Shown: positions 15,163 through 56,900 of the stretch, one piece after another | Layout of the letters: each line of letters starts with the position of its first letter | Numbering within the stretch: the stretch's first letter is position 1 | From: a virus | Virus record (IMG/VR): IMGVR_UViG_3300033388_003385 | Coordinates: 1 to 57,065 of that record | Direction: 5' to 3' (one strand) | Length of the DNA: 57,065 bases | Program-made: the position numbers and the translations under genes | The notes under the pieces: generated by a model | What the model was told of the DNA's origin: nothing | Database searches by the model: none | Seen by the model: only the letters and a program-made list of their open reading frames with translations

Positions 15163-17180
15163 GCTTGAACCCCCTGAGCCCCGGCCTGCGCCTGCTGTTG
15201 AGTCCCTTGCATTTCAGACTCGACCCCTTTCACCAGATTTGGATTGACTATGTCATTAGGGTTCGGCGTCTGTTGCTCAAGTGATTGGCGCGTGCGTTGG
15301 CGTAGATCCTGTTCACTGGGGACCAGCTTATCCACCGCGATATCGAGACCTTTCGCAACCTCACGCAGCAGCGTTGCCCGGCCTTCCATCCCAATGATTT
15401 CCATGTCAATCGGGTTCGCCGTCATCTGCAGGAATTCCTGACGCCGTAACTGAGTCTGTTCCTTGACCAGGATCGCCAGCGCGCCGCGGGGAATGATCTG
15501 CGCATCGCCTTTCATCAGCGCGTATTGATCATCGGGCAGATAGCGCATGTTCCAGGTGTAGAGCCGCTCCATGAGGAGCCGCAGTACATATTGATCCACG
15601 TTCTTAATAACCCGTTTGATTCCGCGCGAGGCCGATTTCATCAGCATTCCCAAGCCAGTCGCCGTCTCAGCCGCCCCACCAACGTCCTGATTGCCGTAGA
15701 CGTATCGCGGGATCATCGTAAGCTCATCGGCCTGGGTGAAGAAGAATTCAGAGACCGCAATCAGCTCCGACGCATTGCTTTGCGGCTGGAAAAAGTCGAC
15801 CGGGTTGGAGTTGTTCGTTTGTTTCCCATGATATTTCCATACCTTCCAGGGGAACATGTTGTTAACGCCAGCAACCTCTTCCGGCGGCAGTGCATCAATA
15901 TCAAGCTTGACCTGTGGCCCGGACGCGATGCTTAGGTTATTGATGAGATTGCGCTGCGTCGCGTTGAGCGCATCTTGGCAATGCGTCATTTGCTCGGGAA
16001 GACTGCGGATACCCCAGATGGACGATGGATTGTGGAACCACGAGCATACGAAATAGGGGCGGCGGTCGAGCGGATCAGGGTTGAGCACTGCTTTAACGAT
16101 GTAATTACCGATCAATACGGCATTCACCTCATAATAGCGGAAAGGATCGTCGATCCCCTTCATACCCCATTCCTGGAGCAGTGAACCGGGAACCGAGCCC
16201 CAGAACTCAATAGATTGAAGGGTTCCATGTGAATACGTATCGTGATACAGCAGCTCACGCTCATCGAGCGTTTCATGTTCGGACTCACCGTCTTGGTAAA
16301 CCCCATGGCCTACACGGTAACCGCGCGGATAGTTCGCCAGCACATCGTTGATTGCTTCGTTTTTGTAGCCCTCAACCCCGCGCATTTCAGACAGAGCCTT
16401 TGAATCCCAATGTGTAATTTCACAGATATAGGTGTCTTGAACCCGCCGTGAATTCGGGCCAGGGTAGAACCAAAACGGGTCAATCGCTTCAAACGTTGGA
16501 ACAGCCTCAGTGACTACCTCACACGAAGTGTTACCCACCTCATCAGTAACCCACTTGAGTTTCTTGCGATGGCGGATGACTGGCCCTTTAAGGATCGCGC
16601 TGGGGTAGACAGTCAGGTACGAGATAAATTCAGTAAACGCCAGGTTGAAATCACCTTCGGCACATTGGTCTTCCATCTTCTGCGACATCCGGTCAGCACG
16701 CTCGCGCGCTTCCTCGTACGTCTCGCTCATGATTTTGTCGTAGAGCGATTCGGCGTAGTTCGTCACATCCTCAGGAGCTGGCGCGCCCATGGCCTGGAAC
16801 TCGCGCACTGTTTGTTCAACGATCCCGCGCTTAACATCTTCGGGGAGGTCAGGGATAGGAGTAGGGACAACGTCCCAGGGTTTATCCGAGGCAGGCGTAA
16901 ATACATCGCCCATCCACGCCTCAGCCGCCTGCGTTTTTACCTGAGTGACGTTCGCATACAGCCGAGAGCCGCCGGAGCGTTGAATAGCGTCCAACTTTTC
17001 CTTCGTGTAGCGCCCCGCGTTCTGCCGTTTACAGATGAGTAAACGCTGCGTGACGTTTGTTGTCGACCGGAATAACTCCGCATCCTCATACGCGCTAAGC
17101 ACATATGCAGACAACTGCGATATAATCGGCTTTTGTTGTTGCTGCGAGTCCTGGTGTTTAGCCAGTGATTCCGCAGTCAT
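15159..17180 (-). CDS. Portal protein (podovirus head-tail connector), about 673 aa
   Basis: The portal forms the dodecameric ring for DNA packaging and tail attachment. Segments typical of podovirus portals are visible: SGPQVKLDIDALPPEEV, then AVSEFFFTQADELTMIPRY, AETATGLGMLMKSASRGIK and VDQYVLRLLMERLYTWNMRY, with a Gln-rich C-terminus. The frame is open further upstream but that part is antisense to a plus-strand gene and the promoter. I therefore take ATG 17178-17180; a TTG about 33 nt upstream with a better-spaced GAGG is an alternative. First gene of the late operon. Confidence 0.85.
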   Translation of the reverse strand: MTAESLAKHQDSQQQQKPIISQLSAYVLSAYEDAELFRSTTNVTQRLLICKRQNAGRYTKEKLDAIQRSGGSRLYANVTQVKTQAAEAWMGDVFTPASDKPWDVVPTPIPDLPEDVKRGIVEQTVREFQAMGAPAPEDVTNYAESLYDKIMSETYEEARERADRMSQKMEDQCAEGDFNLAFTEFISYLTVYPSAILKGPVIRHRKKLKWVTDEVGNTSCEVVTEAVPTFEAIDPFWFYPGPNSRRVQDTYICEITHWDSKALSEMRGVEGYKNEAINDVLANYPRGYRVGHGVYQDGESEHETLDERELLYHDTYSHGTLQSIEFWGSVPGSLLQEWGMKGIDDPFRYYEVNAVLIGNYIVKAVLNPDPLDRRPYFVCSWFHNPSSIWGIRSLPEQMTHCQDALNATQRNLINNLSIASGPQVKLDIDALPPEEVAGVNNMFPWKVWKYHGKQTNNSNPVDFFQPQSNASELIAVSEFFFTQADELTMIPRYVYGNQDVGGAAETATGLGMLMKSASRGIKRVIKNVDQYVLRLLMERLYTWNMRYLPDDQYALMKGDAQIIPRGALAILVKEQTQLRRQEFLQMTANPIDMEIIGMEGRATLLREVAKGLDIAVDKLVPSEQDLRQRTRQSLEQQTPNPNDIVNPNLVKGVESEMQGTQQQAQAGAQGVQA

Positions 17181-17373: not shown

Positions 17374-17766
17374 ATGGGAACCGTAACAAGGACGGTGCGA
17401 TATGACGGCGCGACCCGCCGGGAATGGATCGCGCAACGCAAGTTGGAAGTGAGAACCCGCCGGGAGACCGTTGAGGGCGTCATGGGTTGTTTGATCGCCA
17501 CCGCCCCAAGCGAGCGCCGAAAGGTTAAGACTATCACCCTGCGGATCACCGAGGACGAGCTGGAGATAATGAACACCACACAACCGGAGCTGACGCTAGG
17601 CGATGCCCGTCTATTGACAGTGAAGGAGACAGCACTATTGTTACAACGTTCGCAGAAACAGGTAAGGCGTTACCTCAAGAGCGGCCATTTGTCCGGGCGC
17701 AAGAGTCCAGGGAATGGCAATTGGCTGATCGATGAGCGCGCTGTACAGGAGTTTCTAAGGACGTAA
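17374..17766 (+). CDS. HTH (MerR/excisionase-type) DNA-binding protein, 130 aa
   Basis: The C-terminal half carries a helix-turn-helix of the HTH_17/excisionase type (LLTVKETALLLQRSQKQVRR, then YLKSGHLSGRK and WLIDERAVQEFL). The N-terminal 70 residues are basic with a beta-like TITLRITEDELEIM element. Start ATG 17374 follows GGAGG. It opens the plus-strand island, divergent from the portal promoter, with a membrane protein gene and a repeat array downstream, and could regulate either direction. Confidence 0.7.
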   Translation: MGTVTRTVRYDGATRREWIAQRKLEVRTRRETVEGVMGCLIATAPSERRKVKTITLRITEDELEIMNTTQPELTLGDARLLTVKETALLLQRSQKQVRRYLKSGHLSGRKSPGNGNWLIDERAVQEFLRT

Positions 17767-17805: not shown

Positions 17806-18288
17806 ATGACACACCCGACAACCGCCCAAATCCCGAAGCGTTTTAACTGGTCATCCGCAAAGTTCGTATTCCTCATCTTCTCAGGCTTTGCCGTAGTTCG
17901 AACAATCGGCAAATACCAAACCTTTACAAGAATAGGGATACCTAACGCGCTGGCCGAGGCCGTGGCTGTGGGAGCATTCGTTTTGATTGTAATCGGCATC
18001 CCCGCGGCATTCATATGGGGCTGGATACGCGCCGAGCGCCACCCGTACCTTGTCGAGACGAGTATCCCTTTCCTACCCGAACAGCACAGCGCAATCGACG
18101 ACATCAAAGACCAAATCAATGAGTGCGTCAAAGATACCGTGAAAGGAGAGCTCGAACTCTCCAAGCTTCAGCACGAGAACGACCAACTTAAGGAGCAGCT
18201 CAGGCTCAAAGAGTTACGCGAAGAAAACGAACAGCTTCGCCAGCAATTAGAACCCACATCAAACGATAGCACCAAAATCAGCGAATGA
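17806..18288 (+). CDS. Two-TM, coiled-coil protein upstream of array A, 160 aa
   Basis: Two hydrophobic helices at about residues 20-37 and 45-70 (FVLIVIGIPAAFIWGWI in the second) are followed by a soluble coil (LQHENDQLKEQLRLKELREE). The leader contains CACCGAAAAAAACACCGAAG. The final codons overlap the array: the TGA stop (18286-18288) is inside the first full repeat GAATGAACCA. A membrane-anchored coiled-coil protein; function unknown. Confidence 0.65.
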   Translation: MTHPTTAQIPKRFNWSSAKFVFLIFSGFAVVRTIGKYQTFTRIGIPNALAEAVAVGAFVLIVIGIPAAFIWGWIRAERHPYLVETSIPFLPEQHSAIDDIKDQINECVKDTVKGELELSKLQHENDQLKEQLRLKELREENEQLRQQLEPTSNDSTKISE

Positions 18289-18653
18289 ACCATGCCACCG
18301 GACAGGACCATAAGTAGAGAGTGAACCAACACCATCGACTGCACCAATGGAACAGAATGAACTAGGGCCTTTGAAAGCATCATTAGAACAGAATGAACCA
18401 AGCATTCGGATAGCACCATAACAGGCGAATGAACCATACCGTCGGATAGCATCACAGAAATCGAGTGAACTATTCCAGGCGACAGTACCATGATAACCGA
18501 GTGAACCATCACCGCAGATAGCGCCATAGCATGGGAGTGAACTAGATCCAGAGAAAGTGCCATTGTAAACGAGTGAACCAATGAGAGATGAAAGCACCAT
18601 GAACATGGAGTGAACCAACAATCCCGATAGCACCGTGAGAGATGAGTGAGCCT
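18265..18653 (+). repeat. TIGR-like tandem guide-RNA array A (10 units of 36 nt)
   Basis: Alternating 10-nt repeats, R1 (GARTGAACYA) and R2 (GANAGCACCA), separated by unique 8-nt spacers, recur every 18 nt, so each R1-spacer-R2-spacer unit is 36 nt. R1 copies start at 18283, 18319, 18355, 18391, 18427, 18463, 18499, 18535, 18571, 18608 and 18644 (the last degenerate); R2 begins at 18265 and 18301 onward. One spacer is 9 nt. Spacers differ (for example tgccaccg, taagtaga, acaccatc, gggccttt). The array is in the same sense as its neighbours, starts at the stop codon of the gene before and ends 4 nt before a tRNA-like gene. It matches the two arrays flanking the Nop-domain gene at 38014. Confidence 0.9.
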
Positions 18654-18657
18654 CTGA

Positions 18658-18769
18658 GCGAGAGTGGCGTAATTGGTAGACGCTAGTGTGGAGAAGCTCG
18701 GTTAATAACCGGCACGCAAGGTTAGTAGAAATCGCTGATCCGTAGGTTCGAATCCTGCCTCTCGCACCA
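18658..18769 (+). tRNA. tRNA-Leu-like gene with expanded anticodon arm
   Basis: Seven-bp acceptor arms (GCGAGAG at 18658-18664, CTCTCGC at 18759-18765) are followed by ACCA. The D arm (GCG, AATTGGTAGA, CGC) is leucine-type, and the T arm GTAGG-TTCGAAT-CCTGC is perfect. A variable arm of class II type is possible around TTAG/CTGA. The anticodon region is abnormal: GTGTG pairs with CACGC but encloses 22 nt rather than 7, with an inner hairpin CGGTT/ACCG. The gene is 112 nt long against about 85-90 for leucine tRNAs. It may be degenerate, atypically folded, or a processing element for the array just upstream. Confidence 0.6.
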
Positions 18770-18793
18770 ACTCAACCCATGTGAGAGGGTAGT

Positions 18794-18833
18794 GTTGCCG
18801 TTGTTTGGCAACCCAGTCGGGTGAAGAAGCCCG
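18794..18833 (+). other. Two leader hairpins after the tRNA-like gene
   Basis: GTTGCC/GGCAAC (18794-18812) and CGGG/CCCG (about 18818-18833) form two hairpins in the non-coding stretch before the terminator. Together with that terminator they make a three-hairpin leader ahead of the gene at 18898, which would fit attenuation, but no regulatory ligand or peptide is visible. Confidence 0.4.
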
Positions 18834-18842
18834 CAATCACGC

Positions 18843-18884
18843 GTAGACCCTGGAGAGGTTAAGCCCCAGGGTCTACGTTTTAAC
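18843..18884 (+). terminator. Strong terminator after array A and tRNA-like gene
   Basis: Eleven-bp perfect arms GTAGACCCTGG and CCAGGGTCTAC are followed by GTTTTAACTTT. It ends the transcript that would carry the HTH gene, membrane gene, array A and tRNA-like gene, and lies just before the ribosome-binding site of the next gene. Confidence 0.8.
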
Positions 18885-18897
18885 TTTAGGAGCCCAG

Positions 18898-20437: not shown

Positions 20438-20717
20438 AGACGAAGGCTTTGCATGTGGTTCGCTCGGCTGCACGTCCCATGGTTCGCTCGGCTGCACGTC
20501 CCAGGGATGTGATTACTGCAAGGAGTGTTCTCACGCACACTTCTTTGGGCATGGCTTAGACAAGCAAGGCACGCCGTACTACTGGACGTTCAGCCTGATG
20601 TTCGGGCCACTATTCACAGACTCGAAATACATTGACATTGTAATTCAACCTGACCCGCCGTCTCCACACTGGGAAGCTTTCGAAGAATGGCACAAAAAAA
20701 GGAAGAATGATAAATGA
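20424..20717 (+). CDS. Cys-rich hypothetical protein with an internal 24-nt duplication, 97 aa
   Basis: The N-terminus contains GSLGCTSHGSLGCTSQGCDY and nearby Cys/His residues that could bind metal. The GSLGCTSx unit is a perfect tandem DNA duplication (20456-20479 and 20480-20503). The rest is Trp/Pro/Phe rich. It overlaps both neighbours. Function unknown. Confidence 0.55.
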   Translation: MSKNKDEGFACGSLGCTSHGSLGCTSQGCDYCKECSHAHFFGHGLDKQGTPYYWTFSLMFGPLFTDSKYIDIVIQPDPPSPHWEAFEEWHKKRKNDK

Positions 20718-27091: not shown

Positions 27092-27177
27092 AGCCGAAAC
27101 GGCCTACGGGCCGTCCGTCGGGATTGATCGCCCGGCGCTGACGAGGCAGATCCTCAACCCCAGAGATAGGAGCTCTC

Positions 27178-37109: not shown

Positions 37110-37276
37110 TGACGAAAGTGGAACATACGACCGACCGCTGGTGTGGAATATGCAGGTTGCGCACAACCGAGCAGCTTTGCCCGGTGTGCTTTCATCGTTG
37201 GTGCCGATCTGTACCGACGAACCCCTACGACGAGACGAAGCACAAGCAGGAACAAAAAGAGGGGACGCCGAATTAA
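37109..37276 (+). CDS. Small zinc-ribbon protein, 55 aa
   Basis: ATG 37109 overlaps the previous stop (TAATG) and follows GAGGAG. The product has CGICRLRTTEQLCPVC, a C-x2-C, C-x2-C ribbon, then a Lys/Glu-rich tail and TAA at 37274-37276. Shorter than most ORF cut-offs but clearly coupled. Its end overlaps the opposite-strand terminator of the array transcript. Confidence 0.6.
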   Translation: MTKVEHTTDRWCGICRLRTTEQLCPVCFHRWCRSVPTNPYDETKHKQEQKEGTPN

Positions 37277-37286
37277 CGACGCCCCC
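37251..37286 (-). terminator. Terminator at the end of array B transcript
   Basis: On the minus strand GGGGGCGTCG and CGGCGTCCCC form a 10-bp stem (two G-U pairs) followed by TCTTTTTGTT. It lies about 20 nt beyond the last array repeat, so it would end the tasA-array B transcript and fixes the RNA sense of the arrays as minus. Confidence 0.7.
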
Positions 37287-37303: not shown

Positions 37304-38010
37304 AGGTTCACTCCTTCATTATGGTGCTTTCGACAATTATAGTTCACTCCGGTATCTTGGTTCTCTCCATAAATTTGGTTCACTCCTGTATTCTGGTGCT
37401 TTCTTGAGGGCTGGTTCATTCGCTGGTCACGGTACTGTCAAGTCTACTAATTCACTCGCATGCTTTGGTGCTTTCAAACGTTGTGGTTCACTCTGATCTC
37501 TTGGTACTCTCCTCAGGTGTGGTTCACTCTCGTAACATGGTACTGTCTTGCACATTGATTCACTCATACGGTATGTTTCTTTCATCCAACATGGTTCATT
37601 CTGGGCTATTGGTGCTCTCTCTGTATATGGTTCGTTCGCGTATATTGGTGCTATCCTATACTCTGGCTCACTCTGGCTCACTCTGGTCTTTTGGCGCTGT
37701 CGAAGATGTTGGTTCACTCCAGACTCATGGTGCTTTCATCTATCCTTGGTTCACTCCGAGGTGCTGGTGCTATCTGCGGTTTAGGTTCACTCTATTCATA
37801 TGTTTCTTTCGTATAATCTGATTCACTCAGTTCTTATGGTGCTTTCATGAGTATGGGGTTCACTCTCGTACATTGGCGCGGTCTGTATTTACTAGTTCAC
37901 TCCATATTATTGTTACTGTCGACAAGTATGGTTCACTCTATTCTATTGGTACTGTCCGCGAAACTTGGCTCACTCACTATATTTGGTACTCTCAGAACTT
38001 TGGTTATCTA
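37304..38010 (-). repeat. TIGR-like tandem guide-RNA array B (about 19 units of 36 nt)
   Basis: Seen on the plus strand as TGGTTCACTC-N8-TGGTGCTNTC-N8, that is R1 (GAGTGAACCA) and R2 (GANAGCACCA) in RNA sense on the minus strand. R1 copies start at 37304, 37340, 37376, 37412, 37448, 37484, 37520, 37556, 37592, 37628, 37664, 37710, 37747, 37783, 37819, 37856, 37893, 37929 and 37966; a degenerate copy is at about 38001. R1 at 37664 is duplicated (37674). A few spacers are 9 nt. Spacers are unique. The array starts 4 nt from the tasA stop codon and ends at a terminator. Confidence 0.92.
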
Positions 38011-38013
38011 AAA

Positions 38014-39015
38014 TCAGTCCTTAATTTCCGGCGCTGGCGGCGCGATGTAGTCCTTATGCCCGAGTATAGCGATTGGGTATGGATTTGGCGGCGGCGTGCC
38101 GTAGTGCCACTCATAATAGACGGCGTGGAAGTGTGCAAGGAACAGCTTCACCGCGTACCGCTTTGCCCTTGCATGTATTTGGGCCTTCGGCAATCGCCCT
38201 TGGATGAGCTGCTTATACGCCTCGGTCGACTTGCTCCAGTTCTTTTCCTCCAACGCTCGCGCGGCTTGCTCTGAGAACCCGCCACGCTCATTCTTGACCG
38301 TCTCTTCAGCCTTTCGTTTCTGGTAAAGCTTTCCGTAGAACGCGTCGTCTTTACCCGATACCTTAGTGAACGACTCACCGATAAGCCAGCATCTCTTTTT
38401 GAGCTCGGCGTTATGCGGGCGTCTTGCCAGCGACTTAGCGAGCGACGTGATGGTAAGCGGGATTTTCTCACCATCATTATCCGACGTCGCAAACTTGTGC
38501 AACGTCTCATACTTACGGTCATACCGCGCCGCAATGAGATGTATATCTTCAATGGTCGGCTTCTTACCATTGACCTCTTCCTTGACCAGTTTTAGCGCCT
38601 TCTCAGCAGAGAACCAGTCGCGTTTCGGGTCAAGCCCGGCATAGCGCCAGATGGCGCCAGCGGTTGGCGCTTTCTCTATATCTATATGCGCCAATAAGAC
38701 CGAGGCAATAACCGGGCCGATGCCCATGATGGACGTTGCCCATTGCCCGACGGGGTGACCCTTGGCGTAATGCTCCAGCGCCCGCGCCATCTGCTTTTCC
38801 ATCGTATGCACTTGCTCGTGCATCCATTCCAACACGTTGCAATGTGCGTTATCGACGCCTTGTGTCGCCGCCCGCAACTGGCCCTCGATAGCCGTCCGTT
38901 GTTTCTGCATCCCGTAATACCCGTCTACCAGGTATCTCGCCTCGGCGCGGTTCATCATCGACGCCCCTTTTTTGAGGTCTTTATCGAGCCTCTCGATAAT
39001 ATTCGCATCAATCAT
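38014..39015 (-). CDS. tasA: TasA-like Nop-domain protein (TIGR-associated), 333 aa
   Basis: The N-terminal about 90 residues are helical coiled coil (EARYLVDGYYGMQKQRTAIE). Residues about 97-110 are GIGPVIASVLLAHI, then WRYAGLDPKRDW: the helix-hairpin-helix and A-G-L-D-P pattern of the Nop/IS110 (IS116/902) C-terminal domain. Further conserved parts include LKKRCWLIGESF and, near the end, YGTPPPNPYPIAILGHKDYI. No DEDD/RuvC transposase N-domain or HNH is present. The gene is bracketed by two 36-nt-period arrays, as described for TIGR-Tas, where the Nop protein binds tigRNAs and targets DNA. RBS AGGAG, 7 nt from ATG. An unrelated solo transposase remnant is less likely given the arrays. Confidence 0.85.
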   Translation of the reverse strand: MIDANIIERLDKDLKKGASMMNRAEARYLVDGYYGMQKQRTAIEGQLRAATQGVDNAHCNVLEWMHEQVHTMEKQMARALEHYAKGHPVGQWATSIMGIGPVIASVLLAHIDIEKAPTAGAIWRYAGLDPKRDWFSAEKALKLVKEEVNGKKPTIEDIHLIAARYDRKYETLHKFATSDNDGEKIPLTITSLAKSLARRPHNAELKKRCWLIGESFTKVSGKDDAFYGKLYQKRKAEETVKNERGGFSEQAARALEEKNWSKSTEAYKQLIQGRLPKAQIHARAKRYAVKLFLAHFHAVYYEWHYGTPPPNPYPIAILGHKDYIAPPAPEIKD

Positions 39016-39038: not shown

Positions 39039-39554
39039 GGATTCACTCACGGTTTATGGTACTCTCATGGTATATGGTTCACTCGTTGATATTGGTGCTT
39101 TCGATCAGTGTGGTTCATTCCTGTACTTTGATACTTTCGGCTGAGTTGGTTCACTCTCTTATCATGTTACTTTCATTCAATATGGTTCACTCACAGTCCA
39201 TGGTGCTATCGCCAAGGTTTATTCATTCGCGTACATTGGTGCTTTCGAGTGCGTTGGTTCACTCATTCCATATGGTTCTATCTGGATACTTGGTTCATTC
39301 TCTAACTTTGGTTCTATCGACGTTGATTGGTTCACTCTGTCCTAATGGTACTATCTGGTGCTTTGGTTCACTCTCTTATCATGTTGCGATCAGCTTTGAA
39401 GATTCACTCGTCGCATATGGTTCTATCGCTAAAGATGATTCACTCCTGTGGGTTGATGCTGTCGGCTCACTTGGTTCACTCTCATATCATGGTTCTTTCT
39501 GTTACTGTCGGTTCACTCGGGAGCTATGGTACTGTCATGGAACTTGGTTCAAAA
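39039..39554 (-). repeat. TIGR-like tandem guide-RNA array C (about 14 units of 36 nt)
   Basis: Same R1/R2 architecture as array B. R1 copies start at 39039, 39075, 39111, 39147, 39183, 39219, 39255, 39291, 39328, 39364, 39400, 39436, 39472 and 39509; a degenerate copy (TTTTGAACCA in RNA sense) is at 39545. That last copy contains the TGA stop codon of the upstream ATPase gene. The array ends 24 nt before the tasA start. One spacer (tcttatca on plus) occurs twice with its flanking repeats (near 39157 and 39374), pointing to unit duplication. Confidence 0.92.
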
Positions 39555-40604
39555 AATAAACTCTTTCATTTCCCGTTTGATGTAGATCAGGGTCCAATCG
39601 ACATCGTCTTCATCCCGATAGTTAATCCTAATTTCCCCATCTTTGACGACGAACTCAGCGTCCACAATTTTGAAATCAAGCTCTAGCCAGGTCTTAGGGT
39701 GACCTTTTATAATATCTTCGGGATCGTGATGCGGATTGTCGGCATACCATTCATTCCGTACGCGCCCCATTAGCGGATTTGTGGTATTGAAGTGATCCTT
39801 AATCGATAACTCATTATTCCTCAAGATCGTTACCCGGTAGGACGCGGAGGACGGCCTAAGGTTCATTTGCTTAAACGCCTCCATCGGTTGCTCTTCGGGG
39901 TACAGGTTGAGCTCTTTGATCAATGATACTAAGATATCCATGCTCGTATCGCCAAGGCATGTACAGACCTTAAGGAGGTCGTCTTTCTTGGTCTTATCCT
40001 CAAGTAGATCGTCAGCTACTTCGAGGATCATATCATCTTTCAGCCCATTATACTTTTTCAGGTAGTGGATGCGGCTGGGCCGGTTAAGCATGTACTGAGT
40101 AAGCTGCGTATACTCATTGATGGTAAGCAGGAACAGAAATTTACTGTTGAACTTACCGTCAAGAATATTAAGTAGAGAGTTTTGTTGTTCATTCTCCTTA
40201 TAGATCTTTTCAAACTCATCCATAAAGATCACACAATCCTGTGGGATTTTAGAGAGGAAGCTTAAGAACTCACTGCCGCCGTATGCCTGCGGAATGATGA
40301 TGACGGGTAGCCCGGAATCGTTGCACACCTTTTGCGCCAGCATCGATTTTCCTGTACCCTTCATCCCGCTCAGGAGCACGCCTAGATTGCCATCCCAGCT
40401 ATGGAACGAGTTGAGGTAGCGCGCGCTGAGTTCCGGCGGCTCGCCGTAGATCTTCTCAGGCATAGAGAACGCGTTTGTTTTTTCGAGGTAGAAGCATTCC
40501 CGCATCTTGTGCCAGCGTACGAGCCAGTTACAGACGGGGATTTCGTCAACGGTTTTACCCTGCATCTCTTCAAGATACAGCTTGTTTGATTCAAGAAACA
40601 TCAA
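39549..40604 (-). CDS. AAA+ ATPase, 351 aa
   Basis: Walker A GMKGTGKS (near residue 80) and Walker B CVIFMDEFEK (near residue 125), then sensor-like FLFLLTINEY and RPSRIHYLKKYNGL. A MoxR/RarA-like fold is plausible; the C-terminus is beta-rich and unique. Starts within the end of the radical SAM gene (4-nt overlap) and its stop codon lies in the first repeat of array C, so all are cotranscribed. It might load, remodel or mobilise the Tas complex, but this is inferred only from position. Confidence 0.75.
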   Translation of the reverse strand: MMFLESNKLYLEEMQGKTVDEIPVCNWLVRWHKMRECFYLEKTNAFSMPEKIYGEPPELSARYLNSFHSWDGNLGVLLSGMKGTGKSMLAQKVCNDSGLPVIIIPQAYGGSEFLSFLSKIPQDCVIFMDEFEKIYKENEQQNSLLNILDGKFNSKFLFLLTINEYTQLTQYMLNRPSRIHYLKKYNGLKDDMILEVADDLLEDKTKKDDLLKVCTCLGDTSMDILVSLIKELNLYPEEQPMEAFKQMNLRPSSASYRVTILRNNELSIKDHFNTTNPLMGRVRNEWYADNPHHDPEDIIKGHPKTWLELDFKIVDAEFVVKDGEIRINYRDEDDVDWTLIYIKREMKEFIF

Positions 40605-41332
40605 TCAGGATCTCCTATAGGGTTAATTAAGCCAATCGCCTTTAAGTGTTGTTTTTCGAGCTTATCCATAAGCCCGCATCGGTTGCAGTTGAGGTTGAGT
40701 AGGTTCTCAAGGACTGCCTCATCACTGTCGCCTACCTGGCCGATACTGGCGCATAGCCGCGACTCGCCGGGATAGATACTACCGTCAGCCCCAATGCATG
40801 GCGTACACATCTTGCAGCGCTGCCGGAGAGTCATAATAGCAACAGGCAGGCTTTTAAAGTGTCTTGCTATGGAACGCAGATTAAAGCAGGATGGCGATTG
40901 TTTACCTGTCGTCGCCCCGGCCGAACGCCCGAGCGGTAGAATCTCCGAAGCGATCCGCGGGACATAAAACACAGTCTCGTGCTCAATGACTTTTACTTTT
41001 CGCGGGTAGTACCGCTCATCGTTGGTGATTTGCCACAAACATGGGAGTTCCAGGTACAACGCGGCGCGCTGTTTATCCTCCATCCATGACCCGTTAGAAC
41101 AGACCATGACGGCAATGTTATTTGCCGCCGCAAGTTTGATAAAATCGACAACCATCGGATGCTCAGTCGGTTCACCGCCGCCAAGAATAACGCCAGGCAA
41201 CGGATCGACGCGCCTTGACCACCCCAGCGCTGCTCCGAATATAAAAAGCGTCATATCGTCACCGTCCGGCAATGCATCGTCAAAGCAATGCGAACAGCCC
41301 ATACTACACCGTGTCGTAATCTTAATCAGCAT
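40601..41332 (-). CDS. Radical SAM protein with SPASM-like C-terminus, 243 aa
   Basis: The Fe4S4-binding motif CSMGCSHCFD is at residues about 9-17 (C-x3-C-x2-C), followed by LPGVILGGGEPTEHP (the GGE motif) and a TIM-barrel-like pattern. The C-terminal half has CKMCTPCIGADGSIYPGESR and CNRCGL, an additional-cluster (SPASM/twitch-like) arrangement. The substrate is unknown; a peptide or RNA modification is possible. First gene of the unit that runs through ATPase, array C, tasA and array B. Confidence 0.8.
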   Translation of the reverse strand: MLIKITTRCSMGCSHCFDDALPDGDDMTLFIFGAALGWSRRVDPLPGVILGGGEPTEHPMVVDFIKLAAANNIAVMVCSNGSWMEDKQRAALYLELPCLWQITNDERYYPRKVKVIEHETVFYVPRIASEILPLGRSAGATTGKQSPSCFNLRSIARHFKSLPVAIMTLRQRCKMCTPCIGADGSIYPGESRLCASIGQVGDSDEAVLENLLNLNCNRCGLMDKLEKQHLKAIGLINPIGDPD

Positions 41333-44960: not shown

Positions 44961-47900
44961 TTATCTACGTCTTGACCCGCGACCGCGTCCACGTGTCCGC
45001 CGCGCCCGTCCGCGAATTGTCGGCCTGCCCTCGATAACCTCTTCAGGCTCAAGTTCCAGCAAGCTTTCTTCCTCAGCACGCTCAGCCAGCCCGGCCCGGA
45101 TTTTTTCTTGTCGGGGCGGCGTGCGCATCCTGGTAACCGCGGATTTGATTGTCCGGCGCGTGACAAGTGGGATGGCCTTATTGCGTTGTCGACGTACCGC
45201 CGCGTTATAGGCCTCCATATCATTGATCGTACGTCCGAGCGCCCCGGTATCGTTCTTGAGCAGCGCCCGCCGCATCTGCGCATAGAGTTCTGTACGTCGA
45301 TCGCTGAACGCCCCAGCCGCCCGTTTATCGCGCCATTGCCGGTCACGCATATACGAGATGTTCGACGGGTTGAACTGCAGCGAGCGTAGCAGGAACTCGA
45401 AGTTGGACGCCTTGAGCCGATCCTCACCGTAGAACACCGGTTGATTCGTCCGCGTCGTGACGCCCTCGGACCATTCGCGGTAACCTTTGACAGGTGCACC
45501 CAGCGCTCGCGGCAACATTCTTTCGACGCCCTTGAGCGCATCACCGCGCATCAGGGAAGCAGCACCTTGGGTTAAGTCCTTATAGACCGAGTAGGGCGCA
45601 CCCAGGAAATCACCGAAGGATCGCGGCGCGCCGATATCAACGGCCAGCGACCCGGACAAGTTGAACCCTGCGAGCGACGGCACGCCCTGACGCGCCAGCT
45701 TTTCAGCGGGTTCACCCATTGTATCGCGTAACCAACCGTAGATCTTCTCTTCCGGTTGATCCGGTGCATCGAGGCCGAACGCACTAAAGACCGCGCGCAC
45801 GACCGTGACCGGGATCGCCGCCCCGGCCCCGCCGAGCAGCGTTGGCGCAAGGATCGCATAGGCCAGCGCCTTATGGTCTTTCTTTTCGTAGATCGACGCG
45901 AGCAGCTGGAAATAGTTATGTGTATACGTCTTGAACGTGTAGGCAGACTGTAGCGCCTGCGCCCCGAGTCCGGACCCGCGAACCGCCTTCGGCCGATTCA
46001 CCTTACCGTAAAGCCCGTGTGCTTTGTCCGTGATCTTGATTGCCTTATCGATGGCGTCGGCCCGTTCGGCTGGCGTGAACTCGGTTTTTCCGGCCTGGTC
46101 GCGCATGGCGCTATAGATGCCCATGACCGTACCGCCGCGGTTGACCCGTTCCGTAATCGCAAATGGATACATGAAGATGCGCATAAACGTATCCGCCCCG
46201 CGTCCAAGTTTGCCTTGGATTTGCTCCATAGCCTCACGGTTGAACAGCGCCTCATCATAGTTACGGTTACGCATTTCCTCGTAAGCCGCATGCATGTCCG
46301 CGTCTTTAATCCCTCCGCCGATCCCGCGCGTTTCATGGGCAAGCCCTTGGCTAAAGATCTTCATACCTTCACCAACGTACCGCAACCCTTTACGCAAGGG
46401 GATATTTGCGTAGGCCCGCATTGCCGCCGGGACGTTCGTTACCATCGCCGTAAGGTTGACGACACCGGGCGCGATACCTGTAAGGTACTTCATCGCCGCA
46501 AGTCCCTTAGCAACGCCCATGATACGTTCTGCCGGTTCCTCATTACGTAACAGTTCACGCGTAAAGCTTGTCGACTCCTCATAGAGGTTGGGTTGTTTCG
46601 CCGAATCGATCCGCCGGTCAGAGACAAGCTTACGGTAGTCCTCCCAGAGACTGCTGAGAGCATCTTGTTTCGCTTTGCCCGTCATCTTATCAAAGCCATC
46701 CGGCTTATTCACTTCCCGGTATTCCGCCCAGCTCTCTTCAGTACCAGTCATGATCTTTTGAGCTTGCTTGGCGAAGTTCGTTTTAGCCGTACCGCCTGCA
46801 ACCCCTTTCACGTATTTCGAGATAACCCGGCGTGAATCCTCGTCATAACCGCGGATGACCTGTTCACCCGTGGCGCCAAGCCGTCCGATCTTCGCAGCGC
46901 GCGAGCCCCGGCTTTCAACCTGTTTTGCGATCTGATTGACCAATGCTTGAGCGATAAGCCGAACCGGCGTACGCTCTTCAAGCTTCAGCCGTAGGAGACG
47001 ATTAGCCAGGTCGCTTTCAAGCGTTTGGCTTGGGTCTTTGAAGTGCCACGCTTTACCTTCTTCACCCTGGATCTCAAAGTATTTACCGCCGAAGTCTTTG
47101 AACACCTCATTGTACGCCTCTTTGAAGGGCGTTGTCAGGATCATGTAATCATCGACCCCGCCGTCTTTGCGTTTATACTCGATCTTCTTAGAGGTAATGC
47201 CCATGTCTTTGAGGTCGGCGATTTGTCGTTCTTCGCTGAACTCAGCAGAATCGAGCGCTTGCTGAATCATGTCATTCATCGCGACCAGGTCCAGGTCAAG
47301 GAAAGCCTGCTCACTCGGTCGTTCCGTCCGCTTCCAGGTGACCGCATAGCCTTTGTGCCGCATGGTAGAGGTCCACGCCCGCCGACCGATAGGCGTATCA
47401 AAGATCCGCATATCCACATCGTTGCCTTTCTTCGCCAGCGCCTGGAACCGTCCGCCGCCGCGTTGACGCGGGAAGTAGTGGCCGCGCCGGTCGCCCATTT
47501 CCCGGAGCGCATCGAATAAGTCAACCGTCGTTCCGTCGTCTGCCTCGATCTTGGTTGGATCAAGCCCGACCGCTTCCATTTCCTTAGCAACTCCGCCGAT
47601 GAATTGGGAGAGCTCATCATAGGTGCGGTTTGTGATCCGTCGCCACGCCGCGACCGCGTCCGCCTGTTCCTGGGTGAACTGCTTGTGCGTAATTAAATCG
47701 TTGACCTCACCGGCCACAGCCGCGCGCCATGCTGCTGCCTCGGTCTTGAAGATACCCTTTAGTTTGTAACCAGATGGTTTATAGACCTCGAACTGCCCGT
47801 CTTCATTTTGTTTGACCTTATAGCCCATCGCTTCACGGTCCATCTCAAGCAAGTATTGCTCAACCTTCTTGAATCCCGCCGGATCAGTCTTAGCTAGGTT

Positions 47901-50900
47901 CGAGTAGTATTTAAGGTCGTCTTGGAAGATATCATTTTCCAGGCGCGCTTTGAAGTCGCTCATTCCGCGGCCAGCCTCGAACAGCTTGGCATATCGCTCG
48001 TTCTTTTCCGCTTTATACAGCGGCGTGAGTACCGCATTCGCCAACCAGCCGATATCTTTTTTTACCCCTTTTTCTCTGGGTTGTTCACCAAAGAACGTTT
48101 GTATCCAGGACTGCGCGTTACCCAGGAACCCTTTACCCGCGTCCGCGGTAGGGGTCGGTTTTTCACGGTACTGCACAGCCTCCCGCGCTGCCTCACGAAT
48201 GGGTCCACGCTCCGCAATCTCACCGCCGACGATTTTATCATAGAGATTATACAGCCGGTCGCGATCCGTCGTTAACTTGACGAACGCCTTTACCCGTCGC
48301 AGTAGCCGTCCGAAGATACGCCGGATAGCCCCGGACACTCCTTTCCCGGAGTTCACGTATTCGATAAACTTATTCGCCCGCTTCTCAGCGTTTGGTTCAG
48401 CTTTATCGATGGTTTCCAGCTCATTTGGCGTAAGTAACAAATCCTCAGCTGCGTGCATCGCCTCATGTACTGCGGTGTCGGTCGGGTCCGCTTGCTTATC
48501 AACGATCTTAATGAGTCCTTTGCTATAACTGCCGACCATAGGCTCAGCGCCGCGCAGGACTTGGTCAACAAACTCCAGATCCTTGGCAACCTCAGCGCCC
48601 AACAGCTTCCGCACTAGATTGCGAATCCGCAACTTATCGGCGGCGGATGCCTTGGGCAATGCCTCAGCTAGCGCGTCAGCAGTAGGCTCGCGGAATTGCG
48701 TCTTGCGCGCTTCATCGATCTCAGCTTTAAGGTCCATAAGCTGTTTCAGCTTCTCATACTGCTCAGTGACAAACTCAGCCACTTCCTTATTGTAGCCGAC
48801 CATCGCAGCGGCCTGGCCGCGGTCTGTCATCCCGTCGACAAGGTCAATGCCCTGGTCAAGAGCGTGGAAGATAGCGTCGATATTCTTCTCATATTCACCG
48901 AGTCGTTCACGAATGGCGTTATCGACAAGGTCGATTTCCTGCTGTAGCTGGAGCCAGCGCGGGATCGGCGACGCCGTGTCGACATCAAACTCCAATTCGC
49001 CTTCCGTCTCTACTGTCGGCAACACGTCGGCTTTCTCTTCTGCCTTACGGCGCATGCTTATCTCAAAGCCTTGGCTTCCGCGATACGAGTCATACCCGCC
49101 GCCCTGCGGCCATGCTGGCTTGCCGGTTATTGCCGCGGGTTTTTCACCACTTTGCAATTCTTCGTTGAGCTGTTCTTGTTCGTCGATCAGCTTATCCAGT
49201 TCTTTCGACTCGGAGAATGGCGCATCCATCAGCTTCTTAAGTTCAGCTGCGGCCTCTGCATTCTCTTTGAACTGCGTCTGGATCTTCTTCCTGGTGGCAG
49301 GCATGTTGCGAACCATTCGCGGCACGGCAGAAAGCAATCCTTCGCCAACCGAGAAGGCACCGTCTGCGGTGTACAGGTTGGGCACTTTAATTGATGGGAT
49401 TTGGTATTTGAAGTAAACCCCGCCGTCACGCGCCGAGCTGGTTACGGCGTCGATTCGCACCTCTACGCCATTAATCGTGAGGTTGAACGTTTCGCGCCCT
49501 GGGCGAGCCTCTAAGGTCTTTTCTGCTTGGTCAACGAGTTTGTTGATGTATTCGGCAGCTGCCTTGCCCTTATACGAACGTCCATTGTGGACCAAGGTAG
49601 GTTCCTCGACGTCCATCGACTTCTTATATTTCTCAGTCAGCTTATCGAACGAAGAAAGCACCCTGTCCTGGTCTTTTGCAATTGAGGTTTTCCAACTGTA
49701 ATCAATGGCGATCTTGTCCTTCTTCCGGCGGTGTGCGCGCTCAAGCAACTGGAGTTCTTTCACGCGAGCGTCTACTCCAACCTTACGCCGAGCTGCTGGG
49801 TTGCCGGAGAAGAGGGCAGAGGCTTCGGCAAAGCTCAGTTCAGAATCATTATCTTCAGCCAGCGTCCGGGCCTCTGTCCCTTTCATCCCCTGGTTGATAA
49901 AGCGCTGCTTGCGCTCAAGCATTTGGTACATACCGGCATCAAGAGTTTTCTCGACGCCATAGCGCACGATCTCAACACCGCCGTACTTCTTGACCATCTC
50001 CGGCAATGCAAACATGTTACCCTGGCGGATAATCCGCCCTTCGCGCTGTTCCATGTCGGCTGGTCTATATGGTGCATCTATATGGTGCAGGGCTGCTAAA
50101 CGTTCTTGGATGTTTGCACCAATACCCATACGTGGGGTACTTCCGATCACGACACGGATCTTACCTTCGTTGACTTGGTCGAATAAGAATTCACGCTTTG
50201 TTTGCGTGCTATAGTCGGAGATAACAGCAATTTCATCCTCGGGGACGCCTTTACGAACAAGCTCAGCCTTCAGCTCATCCCAAGCATTGAATAACTCTTT
50301 ACCCTCTTCATCAAGAGCGCGGTAAGTATCCAGGAATACAGCCTGAACACCATCTTCTTTATCATACTTCTTGTAGCGCTCCGTAATCTCAGACGCCGCC
50401 CGCATGAGCTTGGAATTAGGGTCTGCTGGCAATGTGGGGTCAACCAACCGCATATCGACAGTAGATTTGCGCCCAAGACCAAAGATAACCAGGGGAATAT
50501 GTGAGTTCTCTTTCTTCTCTTTGCCCGAGAGGTTTTCAAACCATTCATAGAGTTCGCCAAGGAACTGCGTGTACTCTTCCAGGTTGGGAGTGCGGTCAAG
50601 TTTGATCGTTTGCGGGGTGCCACCTTGAATAGCTGGGCGTGGCACATCTTTAAGATCCTCGGGCAAGATAACATCAGCTGCTTCCTGGAACATTGTCGCC
50701 AGCTCCGGCGCATTCAGGAATGAGGCAAAGCGCTCGATCTGTCGGAACCGTCCAGCCGCGTCTATTTCCAAGCCTGCCACGGTCTGGGTAAATGCTGTAG
50801 CAAACTCATCAAACTTCTCAATACCCCAATCCCGCAGTATTTGCGGGTTGACGTAACGAACCATATTCCACAGCTCGGCCAGAGTATTGGTAACGGGGGT

Positions 50901-53900
50901 GCCTGTTGCCAGCACAATGTTTTTGCCGCCGGTCTTATCCCGAACGTGTTGCAGCTTGATCGAAAGGCTGGAAGCTTTTTGGCTAAAGCCCGTGTCCAGC
51001 CCTTTAACGTTCTCCATCTGCGTCAAGAAGAAGTTCTTTTTATACAAGTGTGCTTCATCCAGGAACACCGCATCAACGCCGAGATCTTCGAAGAAGACCG
51101 TATCGTCAACTTTACGGTCAAGTAGTTTTTTTAACCTGTCTTCAAGGCTCTTTTTGGCCGATTCTAGCTGTTTTACTCCTGGGGACTTCTTACCATCACG
51201 TTCTGCGCCTTCGCGAATGGCATCTTCCAATTCATCCAACTGCCCGCGGATATGCGCTTGGATACGTGCAGGGTCATCCGGGATCAGATCAAACTGCGAA
51301 TGACTTACGACGATGATGTCGTAATCACCGGTCGCAACTCGCGACATAAACGTTTTGCGGTTCTGCGCGCTCATGTCCTTTCTTGTAACCTGGAGAACCT
51401 TTGCCGAAGGATATAGCTTAGGAATGAACTTGGAGAATTGCTCAATCGTAGAGTTCTGCACAACGATCAGGGATTTATCCGCAAGCCCCATGCGTTTCAT
51501 TTCCATAGCCGCCGTAACCATCACGCCGGTCTTGCCCGCGCCCACGGCATGAGCCAGCAATGTCGGCTTTTGCAGGATTCTGTTAACTGCAACGCGCTGG
51601 TAATCACGCAGGATGTATGGTTTATCGTCAACCACAGAGGATGCCCCTGGGTACACATTCCTGTCATACATCTGCGTGTACTTTCGCGGGACAACTGCGT
51701 TAAACTTCTCGTTGTAGATCTTCTCCAGCTCTTGTGCCGACTCCTTGTCGGCTTTGACCCATTCGACGAACTTCTTTCGAATCGTATCGAGCATGGCGCG
51801 TGCAGCAAGAGTGCCTTCCGCATCTTTGACCCTGGACTTCCCGTCAGGTCCAGTTGTATAGACGGTCGGTTGTTTGCCGTTAAGCGCAGCCGTGATCAAC
51901 TTCTCTGCCGTCAAAGTCCCGGAGGCATATTCAGTATTATTTGCGGTAGAGCCCTTGCCGTCCGCAGCGTCAATGCTCCATAGGTTCTGTACGCCTTCCC
52001 GCCCGGACGGCGTCAAGGTGATCGTCGAACGTCGTGATTTGAAAAGATCACGCACCCATCTGGTATAGATGGAGCTTGGCACCCACTGAGAGCCCAGCCG
52101 CAAGCTAATCTCCTGGATCTCCTTATCAACGGGCTGCAAAGGTTTCAACGCGTCGACGTTTCTATCGTAATCGGGGTTCTCCTTTGCGGACTCTGTCGCC
52201 TCGGCAAGCTTTTTGCGCACATTACCGCTCAGGTATTCGTCGCGAGTTTCAATCTGCCCGGTCTGCGGATTGCGGTAGAAATCGGGAGATCCCAGCAATT
52301 CTACCTCAGCCGCATCCGGCGTCATGCCTGTAAGCTCGGTCACGTATTGCATATCGATATTGTTTCGATATGCAATACTGATAGCAGCAGCATCCAGCGC
52401 GTTGTCGGCTTTTTTCGGTTCCTGCCAAGGGTGCTGAACCCGTTTGGTGAAGATAGGGCCTTTAGAATATTCCTTTACAAAGACAATTCTGCCCTTCTTC
52501 TTCACTGTCTTTGGTGTGACTTCTTCGACCGAGAGCACTAGCGGGTATTCAGGGTCTGTGCTTAGAAAACTATGCCTACGGTTGTTTCCGAATTCGCCAT
52601 GTTTCTTGACGTGTTTGTCGTAAGCGTCATTCAACTTCTTGCGCTGCGCCTCAATCTGCTTGTCAGTCGCTTCAGAGGATTTTTCCAGCGAGATCAGAGC
52701 TTTGACGTTCTCACGCACCGGCACATACGTCTTAGCCCGCTCCACTTGCAACTTGTTGTCTCCCCAGGCAACAGGCTGCAACCTGCCCGCGCGGATCTCG
52801 TAGACCTTCCCGCCTTTAACCTGGATGGAATATTCCTTGCCTTTTGCCAATGCGCCTACTTCTGCGTCGGAGTCGCGGATCACGGCAGTTTTGCTTTTGC
52901 CCAACACGTCTTTCGGGAACTGAGTAATTGCCTTGTCCAGGGACTGTTTAACGTCTGTACCTGGGACTACTTCAAGGTTAGGCGTGTCTGCGCGGTACAT
53001 CGAGCCCGTGAGTGCCAACCGCCCGAGAAGCATCTCAGGGTTTGCCGCGTAATATTCGTTGATAGAGACATCGCCCTTTTTGTCATATGTCGGGATGGCC
53101 TTTGTTTCTACCCAAGGCTGGGCTGCTGTTGTCGGTGCTCCGTCACGCTTACGCAAGACGATCATATCCGTCACAACCTCGGTGCCTGCACTCTTCTTGA
53201 ATGTGGTGTCCGGCAAACGAACAGCGCCGACGAGTTCAGCGCGTTCAGCGAGATAGCGACGTTGTTTGATGTTGCTGTCCATAGTCCCTGTACTGGTAAT
53301 AGCGACAACCAAACCTCCAGGCTTCACGGCATCGAGCGCGCGAGCGAAGAAATAGTTGTGCAGAGACATCGTAGGATACGCCTTGTCGTATGGCCCCTTC
53401 TCATGGAAGGGGAAGTTGCCGATCACCATATCCAAGGAGTTGTCCGGGATGTCGGTATCCTCAAGCCCCTTCACGTGGACCTCGGCCTGCGGATACAGTT
53501 TCTCCAGCATACCGCCGGTAACCTTGTCCATCTCGACAGCGACCATGTCCGTCTTCTTCGCCACGTTATCGGGGGTGAGCCCCATAAAGTGACCGACACC
53601 AGCGCCGAATTCACCCACACGTCCACCTTTGAAGCCCAGATGCTCGGCAAGATCCCATGCCCCTTCAATAATACTGCGCTCGGTATAGTGTGCGTTCAGT
53701 ACAGATCGTGCCGCCGCGTCAATTTCTACTTGCGTCAGCAGGTCGGCAAGCTGCTCGTAGTATTTACCCCACTTCTTCGACCATTTTTCATCATAGCCAA
53801 AAGGCTTATACCCACGCTTTGCCTTGATAAGGTGAGCTTGGGCTTTCTCTTTGTCGAAAAGCCCCGCAAGTCCTCCCCAGCCGACGTATTTAGCCAACGT

Positions 53901-56900
53901 CTTCTTTTCTTTCGGGGATGGCAGGCGATCGGCCTTTTGCAGCTTCTTCAATAGAGCGATAGCGCTTAGGTTCGCTTTCGTCTTGGAGACATCGCCGCCG
54001 ACGATAAGTACATCTTCAGGGGCAATGCGGTGGTTCTTTTCGGCAGGAGTTAGTCTTGCAGGCTTCTCTTGAACCGGCTCAATTTCGCCTTCAACCTTGG
54101 CGACAACGGCGGTTGGCTCATCTCTGTCTCGGGGTACACGATCTCTCTCAGTACGAGCTCGCTTGCCTCTTGTTTCGACATCCCGCCCTGTATCAGCTGG
54201 TACTCCTGGCCCCACGCCTGTTGCGTCTTTTTGTCCAGGTAGTTTTCTAGCGGCTTTGTCCCGTCCTTCTTCAGGAGTCGGGCCAGCCTTAGCGGCTGCT
54301 CTTCTTCCAGCCACTCCAGGTGCTTCCACCACATCGGGCTTTCGTTCATCTCTAACGTCGACATCAACAGGTTCCTCTTCCTTACTTATAATAGACTCTT
54401 TCCCGACGCCCTTGTCAACGATTTTGAGGATAGCCTTCGCCTCTTTCCTGGTCACGTCCTGCATGTCATCGCCGAATTCTGACTGCTCGGCTGCACCCTG
54501 CCACCAGGAGACGAGGTAGGGCTTTGCTTTATCGCCGAACACATCAATCATGTTCTTGGCGTATTCAGCAAAATTGCGGATGCCTGCTTCTGCGTAGATC
54601 ACAGTCAGCTCGATACCATCGCTCATCAACGTAGGGTCGATCCCTACGCCAAGGTGGCCAAACTTCTTTTGCATCTTCTTCTTCAGCTCTTCCGCCCGAG
54701 CCTGCTTCTCTTCAGAGAGATTAGAAAGGAAACCGGCCTCCCGTTTCGCTTTAACCTCTTTCGCCTTTTTCTTGATCTGTTCAGCTTTTGAAGGCTCCGC
54801 GGGTTTTTTTATAAGTGGCTTCGCAATCGGCTTCGGTACTGGTTCCGGCGTCGGTGCAACTTCGGCCTCTTCCGCCTTTAGCTCTCTAACTCGCTTGGGC
54901 TCCGCAGTCTCCAGCTTCTCTGCCAAGGCATCACGTGCCCACTTATTAAACTTATATGCCTCAAGCACTTTAACAGGAACGTCCCGCCCCTCTTTAAGGG
55001 CTTGTTTCACCTGTTTAGGATGTGCGCTCTTTTTGATAGCTATTTCATTTACATCGGTTACGTCCTCGACATATTCAGACGGTGTCAACATCCACGGTTC
55101 TTCCGCCTTTGAAGGCTTCACTTCCCCTAGCTCTTGCTCTGTCGCCGCAATCTCTTCCTCAGTAATATCCACTTGCTCAGCAGGCGCGGCCATTTCCTCT
55201 ACTGGCGCAGGTTCAGGCTCCACCAGAGCCGCCGCTTCCGGGACGGCCTGGGCTGCGCGGGCTAACTCAAACTCTTCCATACGTTGCGATTCTTCCGGCG
55301 TTGCCGTGATTTCACGTTCCGCGCGCAACTCCTCGAATGGCTGTTGCAACCCTTGTTGAGCACGTTCGTAATCAGACCGCAATTGCCGCCCTGGTTCGCC
55401 GGAGATATCCTCTTCAGCAAGTAATGCAGCTTGCTGAACATCGTTCCCGGCGGCGCGCATATACTCAACCCAAGCTTGCGGCCCGACTTCGTCGCGCAAA
55501 GCAGCGACTTCCATTTCATCAAAAGAGACCTCAGGCGCAACCGCTTGCGGGGGAATGGGGGGTGCTTCTGGGGGGATTGGCTGTTGTGCGGCTGGTTGTT
55601 CTGCTCCTAACCCAAACAGGATATCATCCACATCGCTTTCGGGCGGTACGAACTCCAGGCCTTCCGCTTCAGCCGTCGATTCCGGCGATGCCGGGGCTGG
55701 ATCGACCGTTTGCCCGGTGGCCATATCGACAGGTTCTTGCGGCGTTTCTGCACCCTCATCCAGCCCGTGCTGTTGTTCCGTTTCCGTGGTTGAATCAGAG
55801 AACGGTTGTAGCGTACCCTCATCGATCATATCGACCGGCGCTTTTTGTGAGCGCTCAGCCGTTTTAGCTGCGAGCCGTCGTAGCCCGCGCCCGGTTGCGG
55901 ACGCCCCGCCGAACATTCCACCGGCAAGACCGCCGGATGCTGAGGCCTCGGCCCAGTTCATGAATTGTTCTTTCGTAGCGATGCGGAATTCCGGGTCATT
56001 GATCTCTTGGTTGAGCGAGCCTAGGAACTCCTGGAACCCTTCTTGCCCGGCTTCAGTTCCGACAGAATCCCATAGCGCCCCAGCGGCGCGACGAGTAAGC
56101 CCGCGCTTGCCCAGGTCGGCGACCTTAGAGCGAACTGCTCCGGAGAAAATCTTATTCAGCTTCGGCGTCACACCAAACGCACTCTCTGAAAGGCCCGAGA
56201 CGAGGCCCAGCGCCAACGAGGAGACCGGCGCATCGATTCCCCGTTCTTTGAGCTCACCGTACATCCCGCCGCCTTCCATGGCTGTACCGGCAATCGTTGT
56301 ACCCAGGAACGCCCCACCGCGTTTTGCGAGGTGATTGTGCAGTTGCCGTTTAGCGAGTTCACGCGCCGTTTTGTGACTGACGCCCTTCTTGAGGTGTTGC
56401 GCCGCCATCTTCGCGAGTGCCTGCTTAATCGCGCCGCGCGAGAAGAAACCACCGATAGCCCCGGCGGGGATCGCGACCACATCATCCGGACCAATGCCGG
56501 GGACGGCCTGCGACCCGATAGCCGCACCAGCTGCGGACGTCAGCGCCATCTCAGTTAGCGACGGCAGGAACTCACCGATCGTACCAGCGGCCCACGTTCC
56601 CAGGTTCTCGACAGAGCCGAAGGCCCCTTGCTTGGGATCGGCGGAAAAGAACTTTTGCACAGTCCGCGGGTTTTCCGCAGCTTCGCGCATTTGCTCCTGA
56701 TAGCCTTCAAACGACCGTTGCGCCCCGAGCTCATCGCCGGTGAGCTTACGCATCGCGCCCAGGAACCCGTGACCTGTGGCTTGTAGATTATCAATACCGG
56801 AAAGAAGCCCGCGCGTGAACTCTGAGCGCCCGGCAAGGTTTTTCGCCGCGATCTGCTCGGTTTCGATTGCCTGTTGCTCTTCTTCTTGGGCAAATTCATC

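What the first reader, a model, noticed from the sequence alone, without database searches (positions are those of the whole stretch)
18265..18653. A third TIGR-like array 20 kb from tasA, on the other strand
Array A has the same R1/R2 sequences, spacing and spacer length as arrays B and C, but no Tas gene nearby. In RNA sense all three read R1-N8-R2-N8. A distal array implies the Tas protein acts in trans on guides from separate transcripts, possibly expressed at different times (island versus tasA operon).
Basis: partly seen in the sequence, partly recalled or inferred. Interest (0 to 1): 0.85.

Follow-up and report, generated by a model that had tools for sequence, protein, structure and literature searches.

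The report
Phage guide-RNA array far from effector
This phage carries a clean set of 11 dual-guide RNA units on its own operon, 19 kb away from and on the opposite strand to the only gene for the protein that should use them, and several other phages scatter such arrays the same way, so the published picture of one effector flanked by its own guides is incomplete.

Summary
Window 18265-18653 (+) holds 22 alternating 10-nt repeats (11 units, 36-nt period), indistinguishable position by position from the two arrays beside tasA. It is a genuine dual-repeat TIGR array (positive control: the experimentally studied Salicola phage CGphi29 array). tasA (38014-39015, -) is a solo-Nop TasA; its model matches TasH (Z 19.7) and TasR (Z 18.1). 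A profile search finds only this one tas in the record, so if a phage protein uses array A, TasA must take its RNAs in trans. The layout recurs: 7 of 33 tas-bearing viral records have arrays 6.8-60 kb from their single tas, 3 of them with some on the opposite strand; tas-proximal arrays always ran with tas. Distal arrays usually fill gaps between co-directional genes (DNA polymerase/clamp loader, TerS/TerL, near SbcD/SbcC). Array A overlaps the end of a membrane-protein ORF and is followed by a tRNA-like gene and a terminator-like hairpin. The discovery paper looked only within 5 kb of tas. No tigRNA targets the phage's own genome under the published geometry; matches in relatives are at chance. 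Expression, processing and timing could not be tested. New variant of a known kind.

The parts
18265..18653 (+). Array A: 11 tigRNA units, edge GAGTGAACCA / loop GATAGCACCA, 8-nt spacers
   Evidence: degenerate 5' edge at about 18246-18256
17806..18288 (+). ORF, 160 aa, hydrophobic segments then a predicted coiled coil (weak Pfam coiled-coil hits only); its 3' end overlaps the first unit of array A
17374..17766 (+). HTH_17 / excisionase-like regulator, first gene of the + strand island
17614..17641 (+). sigma-70-like promoter match (10 of 12) upstream of ORF 17806; number of matches is not above shuffles, so weak
18658..18769 (+). class-II tRNA-like gene with intact acceptor, D, T and variable arms and about 15 extra nt in the anticodon loop; starts 4 nt after the last edge repeat
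   Evidence: Rfam tRNA 37.8 bits, ARAGORN intron mode, fold
18841..18885 (+). strong hairpin followed by a T-rich tail, candidate terminator of the array A transcript
   Evidence: fold of 18770-18895, z -4.3; not flagged by the simple scan
38014..39015 (-). tasA, 333 aa, solo Nop-type TasA with a helical insert at about residues 137-196
39039..39554 (-). Array C, upstream of tasA, 14 units
37304..38010 (-). Array B, downstream of tasA, about 19 units with one 10-nt edge duplication
37261..37286 (-). intrinsic-terminator-like hairpin just after array B
39549..40604 (-). AAA ATPase gene; its stop codon lies in the truncated first edge repeat of array C

Best explanation
Array A is a functional-looking dual-repeat TIGR array placed in its own + strand gene set in an island between the terminase and portal genes. 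Its transcript (upstream membrane-protein ORF, array, tRNA-like gene, hairpin) would supply 36-nt tigRNAs to the single phage TasA encoded 19 kb away on the other strand. TasA would bind them through the shared GA...CCA box motifs and be guided to DNA by paired 8-nt spacers, without cleaving, since it has no nuclease domain. Shown: the array, its equivalence to the tas-proximal arrays, the single tas, the Tas fold, and recurrence of distal arrays in other phages. Inferred: transcription from the local operon, processing, trans loading, non-cleaving DNA binding. Guess: the downstream tRNA-like gene gives the array a defined 3' end through RNase P, and separate operons give separate timing.
For: 22 regular repeats against at most 3 in shuffles. 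Repeats equal B+C at every position and rank first against the own proximal profile among 15 genomes. One tas only. TasA model: TasH-tigRNA Z 19.7 (217 aligned, 3.0 A), TasR Z 18.1 (195 aligned, 2.2 A); profile hits TasR 8.5e-25 and TasH 1.2e-14. The validated SpTIGR array of phage CGphi29 has the same 10-8-10-8 plan (AAGCGAGCCA / AAGACAACCA) and is found by the same scan. Distal arrays in 7 of 33 records, ranking first or second for own-genome repeats in G000, G014, G016 and G020. Distal arrays mostly co-directional with the upstream gene and often fitted between adjacent genes with gaps of about 30 nt or less.
Against: No RNA data. No target was found: in the own genome 0 perfect or one-mismatch sites for 43 units, and in relatives counts equal shuffled pairs. 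Seven of 22 repeats of array A lack an exact CCA, although B and C are equally imperfect. No close relative holds the island, so conservation of array A itself could not be tested. The tRNA-like neighbour is not seen beside distal arrays elsewhere.
Confidence: 0.78

Rival explanations
1. Array A is a relic: a former tas-linked array left behind by rearrangement, no longer transcribed or used.
For: It lies in an island of lower GC (0.493 against 0.526 for the genome), and some repeats have lost CCA.
Against: Its spacing is as regular as or more regular than that of B and C, and its repeats are equally conserved. All 22 repeats keep GA and G5. Its spacers are not copies of B or C spacers. Distal arrays recur in other phages.
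Confidence: 0.1
2. The array serves as an RNA element rather than as guides: TasA bound to repeats in a polycistronic transcript directs its cleavage or changes its stability, so arrays between genes tune those genes.
For: Distal arrays fit between consecutive operon genes, including DNA polymerase/clamp loader and TerS/TerL. Tas is required for precursor cleavage at edge repeats by an unidentified nuclease (PMC12045711).
Against: Spacers are variable and keep the guide length. Array A is not between two operon genes, but between an ORF end and a tRNA-like gene. No expression data.
Confidence: 0.07
3. The array is a decoy or guide set for a Tas protein of the host or of a competing element.
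For: Array A is physically apart from tasA. Tas genes occur in bacterial genomes and prophages.
Against: Array A repeats fit the own proximal arrays best of 15 genomes, which a decoy for another Tas would not predict.
Confidence: 0.04
4. The repeat is a coding tandem repeat (12-residue period) of an ORF on the minus strand.
For: A minus-strand frame is open over 137 aa.
Against: Single-base spacing changes shift the frame in all three arrays, the equivalent frames in B and C carry stops, and the period follows from a 36-nt unit.
Confidence: 0.01

Closest known systems
TIGR-TasA, dual-repeat TIGR arrays (Faure et al. 2025, PMC12045711)
   Same: Solo-Nop Tas protein; alternating 10-nt edge and loop repeats, 8-nt spacers, 36-nt unit; arrays up- and downstream of tas; truncated 5' edge; terminator after array B
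   Different: An additional array 19 kb away on the other strand in its own gene set, followed by a tRNA-like gene. The paper describes arrays next to tas and extracted only 5 kb on each side
SpTIGR-TasH of Salicola phage CGphi29
   Same: Repeat and spacer lengths and edge/loop pattern; Nop fold
   Different: TasH has an HNH domain; one array directly downstream of tas (15365-15753), none distal
IS110-family RNA-guided recombinases (IS621, ISCro4)
   Same: Same RNA-binding fold (Z about 14), Pfam Transposase_20 hit
   Different: No DEDD catalytic domain; guide arrays instead of one bridge RNA
CRISPR systems with stand-alone (orphan) arrays served in trans
   Same: Arrays away from the effector gene, shared repeats
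   Different: Unrelated effector, dual 8-nt spacers, no adaptation genes; analogy from general knowledge only

Membership tests
TIGR-Tas (dual-repeat) | Tas protein with Nop fold | tested here: met
   VIA-align Z 19.7 to TasH, 18.1 to TasR; profile 8.5e-25 to TasR
TIGR-Tas (dual-repeat) | two alternating 8-12-nt repeats with 8-12-nt spacers, 36-nt unit | tested here: met
TIGR-Tas (dual-repeat) | box C and D motifs shared by edge and loop repeats | tested here: met
   CCA at the end and GA plus G5 in both repeats: GA and G5 in 22 of 22, CCA in 15 of 22 for array A; the exact TasR 'UG' box is in the edge but not the loop, and the paper allows diverging, covarying motifs
TIGR-Tas (dual-repeat) | array located beside the tas gene (descriptive, from a 5-kb search; not a mechanistic requirement) | tested here: inconclusive
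   met by arrays B and C of the same system, not by array A itself, 19,361 bp away
TIGR-Tas (dual-repeat) | processed 36-nt tigRNAs bound by Tas | not testable with these tools
   needs RNA sequencing
TIGR-Tas (dual-repeat) | spacer A and spacer B pair with opposite strands of a DNA target | tested here: inconclusive
   no target found in the own genome or relatives above shuffled pairs; host unknown
TasA (nuclease-free class) | no RuvC or HNH domain | tested here: met
   333 aa; alignment to TasR begins at TasR residue 111 and Pfam shows no nuclease domain
IS110 transposase | DEDD catalytic domain | tested here: not met
   model aligns only to the C-terminal RNA-binding part, from residue 125; no such Pfam domain

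The most novel reading that the evidence does not exclude
Phages distribute guide arrays for one Tas protein through several operons (replication, packaging, accessory islands) so that the guide set, and possibly Tas-dependent processing of those operon mRNAs, changes through the infection cycle: a staged RNA-guided programme run by a non-cleaving protein.
Probability: 0.2. Interest if true: 0.88.

Novelty: new variant of a known kind. Interest (0 to 1): 0.62.

Why it matters
TIGR-Tas has no known natural role or targets, and the published survey looked only beside tas. Dispersed arrays mean that guide repertoires have been under-counted, that Tas is probably a trans-acting protein serving several transcripts, and that array position in named operons gives a first handle on when guides are made. 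That can be tested directly by small-RNA sequencing of an isolated phage.

Tried and rejected
Self-targeting under the published geometry (spacer A followed by the reverse complement of spacer B, gap 0-2) and three alternative geometries: no perfect or one-mismatch hits, two-mismatch hits near chance. The A+rc(B) order was derived here from the reported 8-nt 3' overhangs and C-5 rule. Targets in related phages: 2 perfect and 34 one-mismatch against 1 and 34-40 for shuffled pairs; an earlier run with near-duplicate genomes looked slightly enriched and was not trusted. Array A as a copy of B or C: no clear excess of similar spacers. Empty-site comparison: no relative of the portal or of the 17806 ORF in the viral collection. 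Link of the AAA ATPase or radical SAM gene to tas elsewhere: none. Same repeats in bacterial genomes by exact pattern: none, although tas relatives occur. The repeat-profile match for G019 was uninformative because its tas-proximal array has only 5 repeats. The automatic context call for array A chose an antisense TTG ORF; the ATG ORF 17806-18288 on + was preferred by reading.

Full report
Observation. The window is a whole viral record of 57,065 bases. At 18265-18653 on + there are 22 alternating 10-nt repeats, 11 loop-type and 11 edge-type, with 8-nt spacers and an 18-nt step broken once by a 19. Twenty Markov shuffles never gave a chain longer than 3. The two tas-proximal arrays are array C (39039-39554, -) and array B (37304-38010, -). 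No repeat position differs between array A and B+C.

Which repeat is the edge. In the validated SpTIGR array of Salicola phage CGphi29 the repeats are AAGCGAGCCA and AAGACAACCA with 8-nt spacers, and the array ends in the AAGCGAGCCA type just before a hairpin and T-run. By the same rule GAGTGAACCA is the edge here: arrays A, B and C all end with it, and begin with a 5'-degenerate copy of it.

The effector. tasA (38014-39015, -) has a Transposase_20 hit. A profile of 14 relatives hits TasR (9mty, 8.5e-25) and TasH (1.2e-14) among solved structures. The AlphaFold model (mean pLDDT 84) aligns to TasH at Z 19.7 and TasR at Z 18.1, and to IS110-family enzymes at about 14. There is no RuvC or HNH domain, so it is a TasA. 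It carries a folded helical insert at about residues 137-196 shared with two of the 13 aligned relatives. The record has no second tas.

Surroundings of array A. It lies on a + strand island (17374 to about 21700, GC 0.493 against 0.526) between the terminase and portal genes, both on -. The island starts with an HTH/excisionase-like gene and a membrane coiled-coil ORF whose last codons are part of the first unit of the array. Four nt after the last edge repeat starts a tRNA-like gene (Rfam 37.8 bits, above its gathering score) with all arms intact but extra sequence in the anticodon loop, and then a strong hairpin with a T-rich tail. Arrays B and C likewise start at the stop codon of an upstream co-directional gene (tasA and an AAA ATPase), and array B ends at a terminator-like hairpin.

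Is a distal array unusual? A repeat pattern search and a tas profile search gave 18 array-bearing stretches and 514 tas-bearing stretches in viral contigs. Contigs of 38 other records were read in pieces and scanned, most of them with genome-specific repeat profiles and a reversed-sequence control. Of 33 tas-bearing records assessed (a few near-duplicates among them), 7 have arrays more than 5 kb from their only tas: the window (19 kb, opposite strand), G014 (60 kb), G016 (6.8 kb), G019 (15-40 kb, both strands), G020 (36-39 kb), G034 (13-54 kb) and G047 (18 kb, opposite strand, 46 repeats). Several of these were chosen by the array pattern, which favours them; among 17 assessed records chosen by tas similarity, 2 have distal arrays. 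Short ones (4-6 repeats, in G016 and G019) are less certain. In all 32 records, arrays within 5 kb of tas run in the tas direction.

Where distal arrays sit. Nearly all are co-directional with the gene just upstream, and many fill the gap between two co-directional genes (the exceptions are one G034 array and the automatic call for the window, which picked an antisense ORF). Examples: between DNA polymerase and clamp loader and between TerS and TerL in G019, and between or beside SbcD- and SbcC-like genes in G016 and G020. This suggests that local operons drive them; timing is an inference.

Targets. Using the order derived from the published cleavage rules, none of the 43 units matches the own genome with 0 or 1 mismatch, and matches to related phages equal shuffled spacer pairs. 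So there is no sign that the guides are aimed at the phage's own genome or at these relatives; the host is unknown.

Relation to what is known. All testable defining features of dual-repeat TIGR-TasA are met for the system. What differs is the position of array A. Faure et al. extracted 5 kb around tas, so this layout would not have been seen, and a search of the open-access library found no later TIGR survey. Trans provision of tigRNA works in their assays.

Noticed in passing
window 27092-27155 +: Rfam Hammerhead_II ribozyme match, 52 bits against a gathering score of 37.
   Followed up: no
window 18658-18769 +: tRNA-like gene of class-II shape with about 15 extra nt in the anticodon loop, missed by ARAGORN in default mode.
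   Followed up: partly
window 39549-41332 -: Radical SAM gene (weak viperin-like PADLOC hit) followed by an AAA ATPase directly upstream of array C and tasA; no such neighbours found by tas elsewhere.
   Followed up: partly
window 44961-56927 -: Single 3988-aa ORF with helicase- and methyltransferase-like regions by reading.
   Followed up: no
window 20456-20503: Perfect 24-nt tandem duplication TGGTTCGCTCGGCTGCACGTCCCA inside a small ORF of the island; it contains a TGGTTCGCTC stretch resembling the reverse complement of an edge repeat.
   Followed up: no
L059 5095-5339 (G019:85095-85339): A 14-repeat TIGR array fills the gap between the small and large terminase genes.
   Followed up: partly
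window 37664-37683: Edge repeat duplicated back to back (GAGTGAGCCAGAGTGAGCCA) in array B, a possible slip event of array growth.
   Followed up: no
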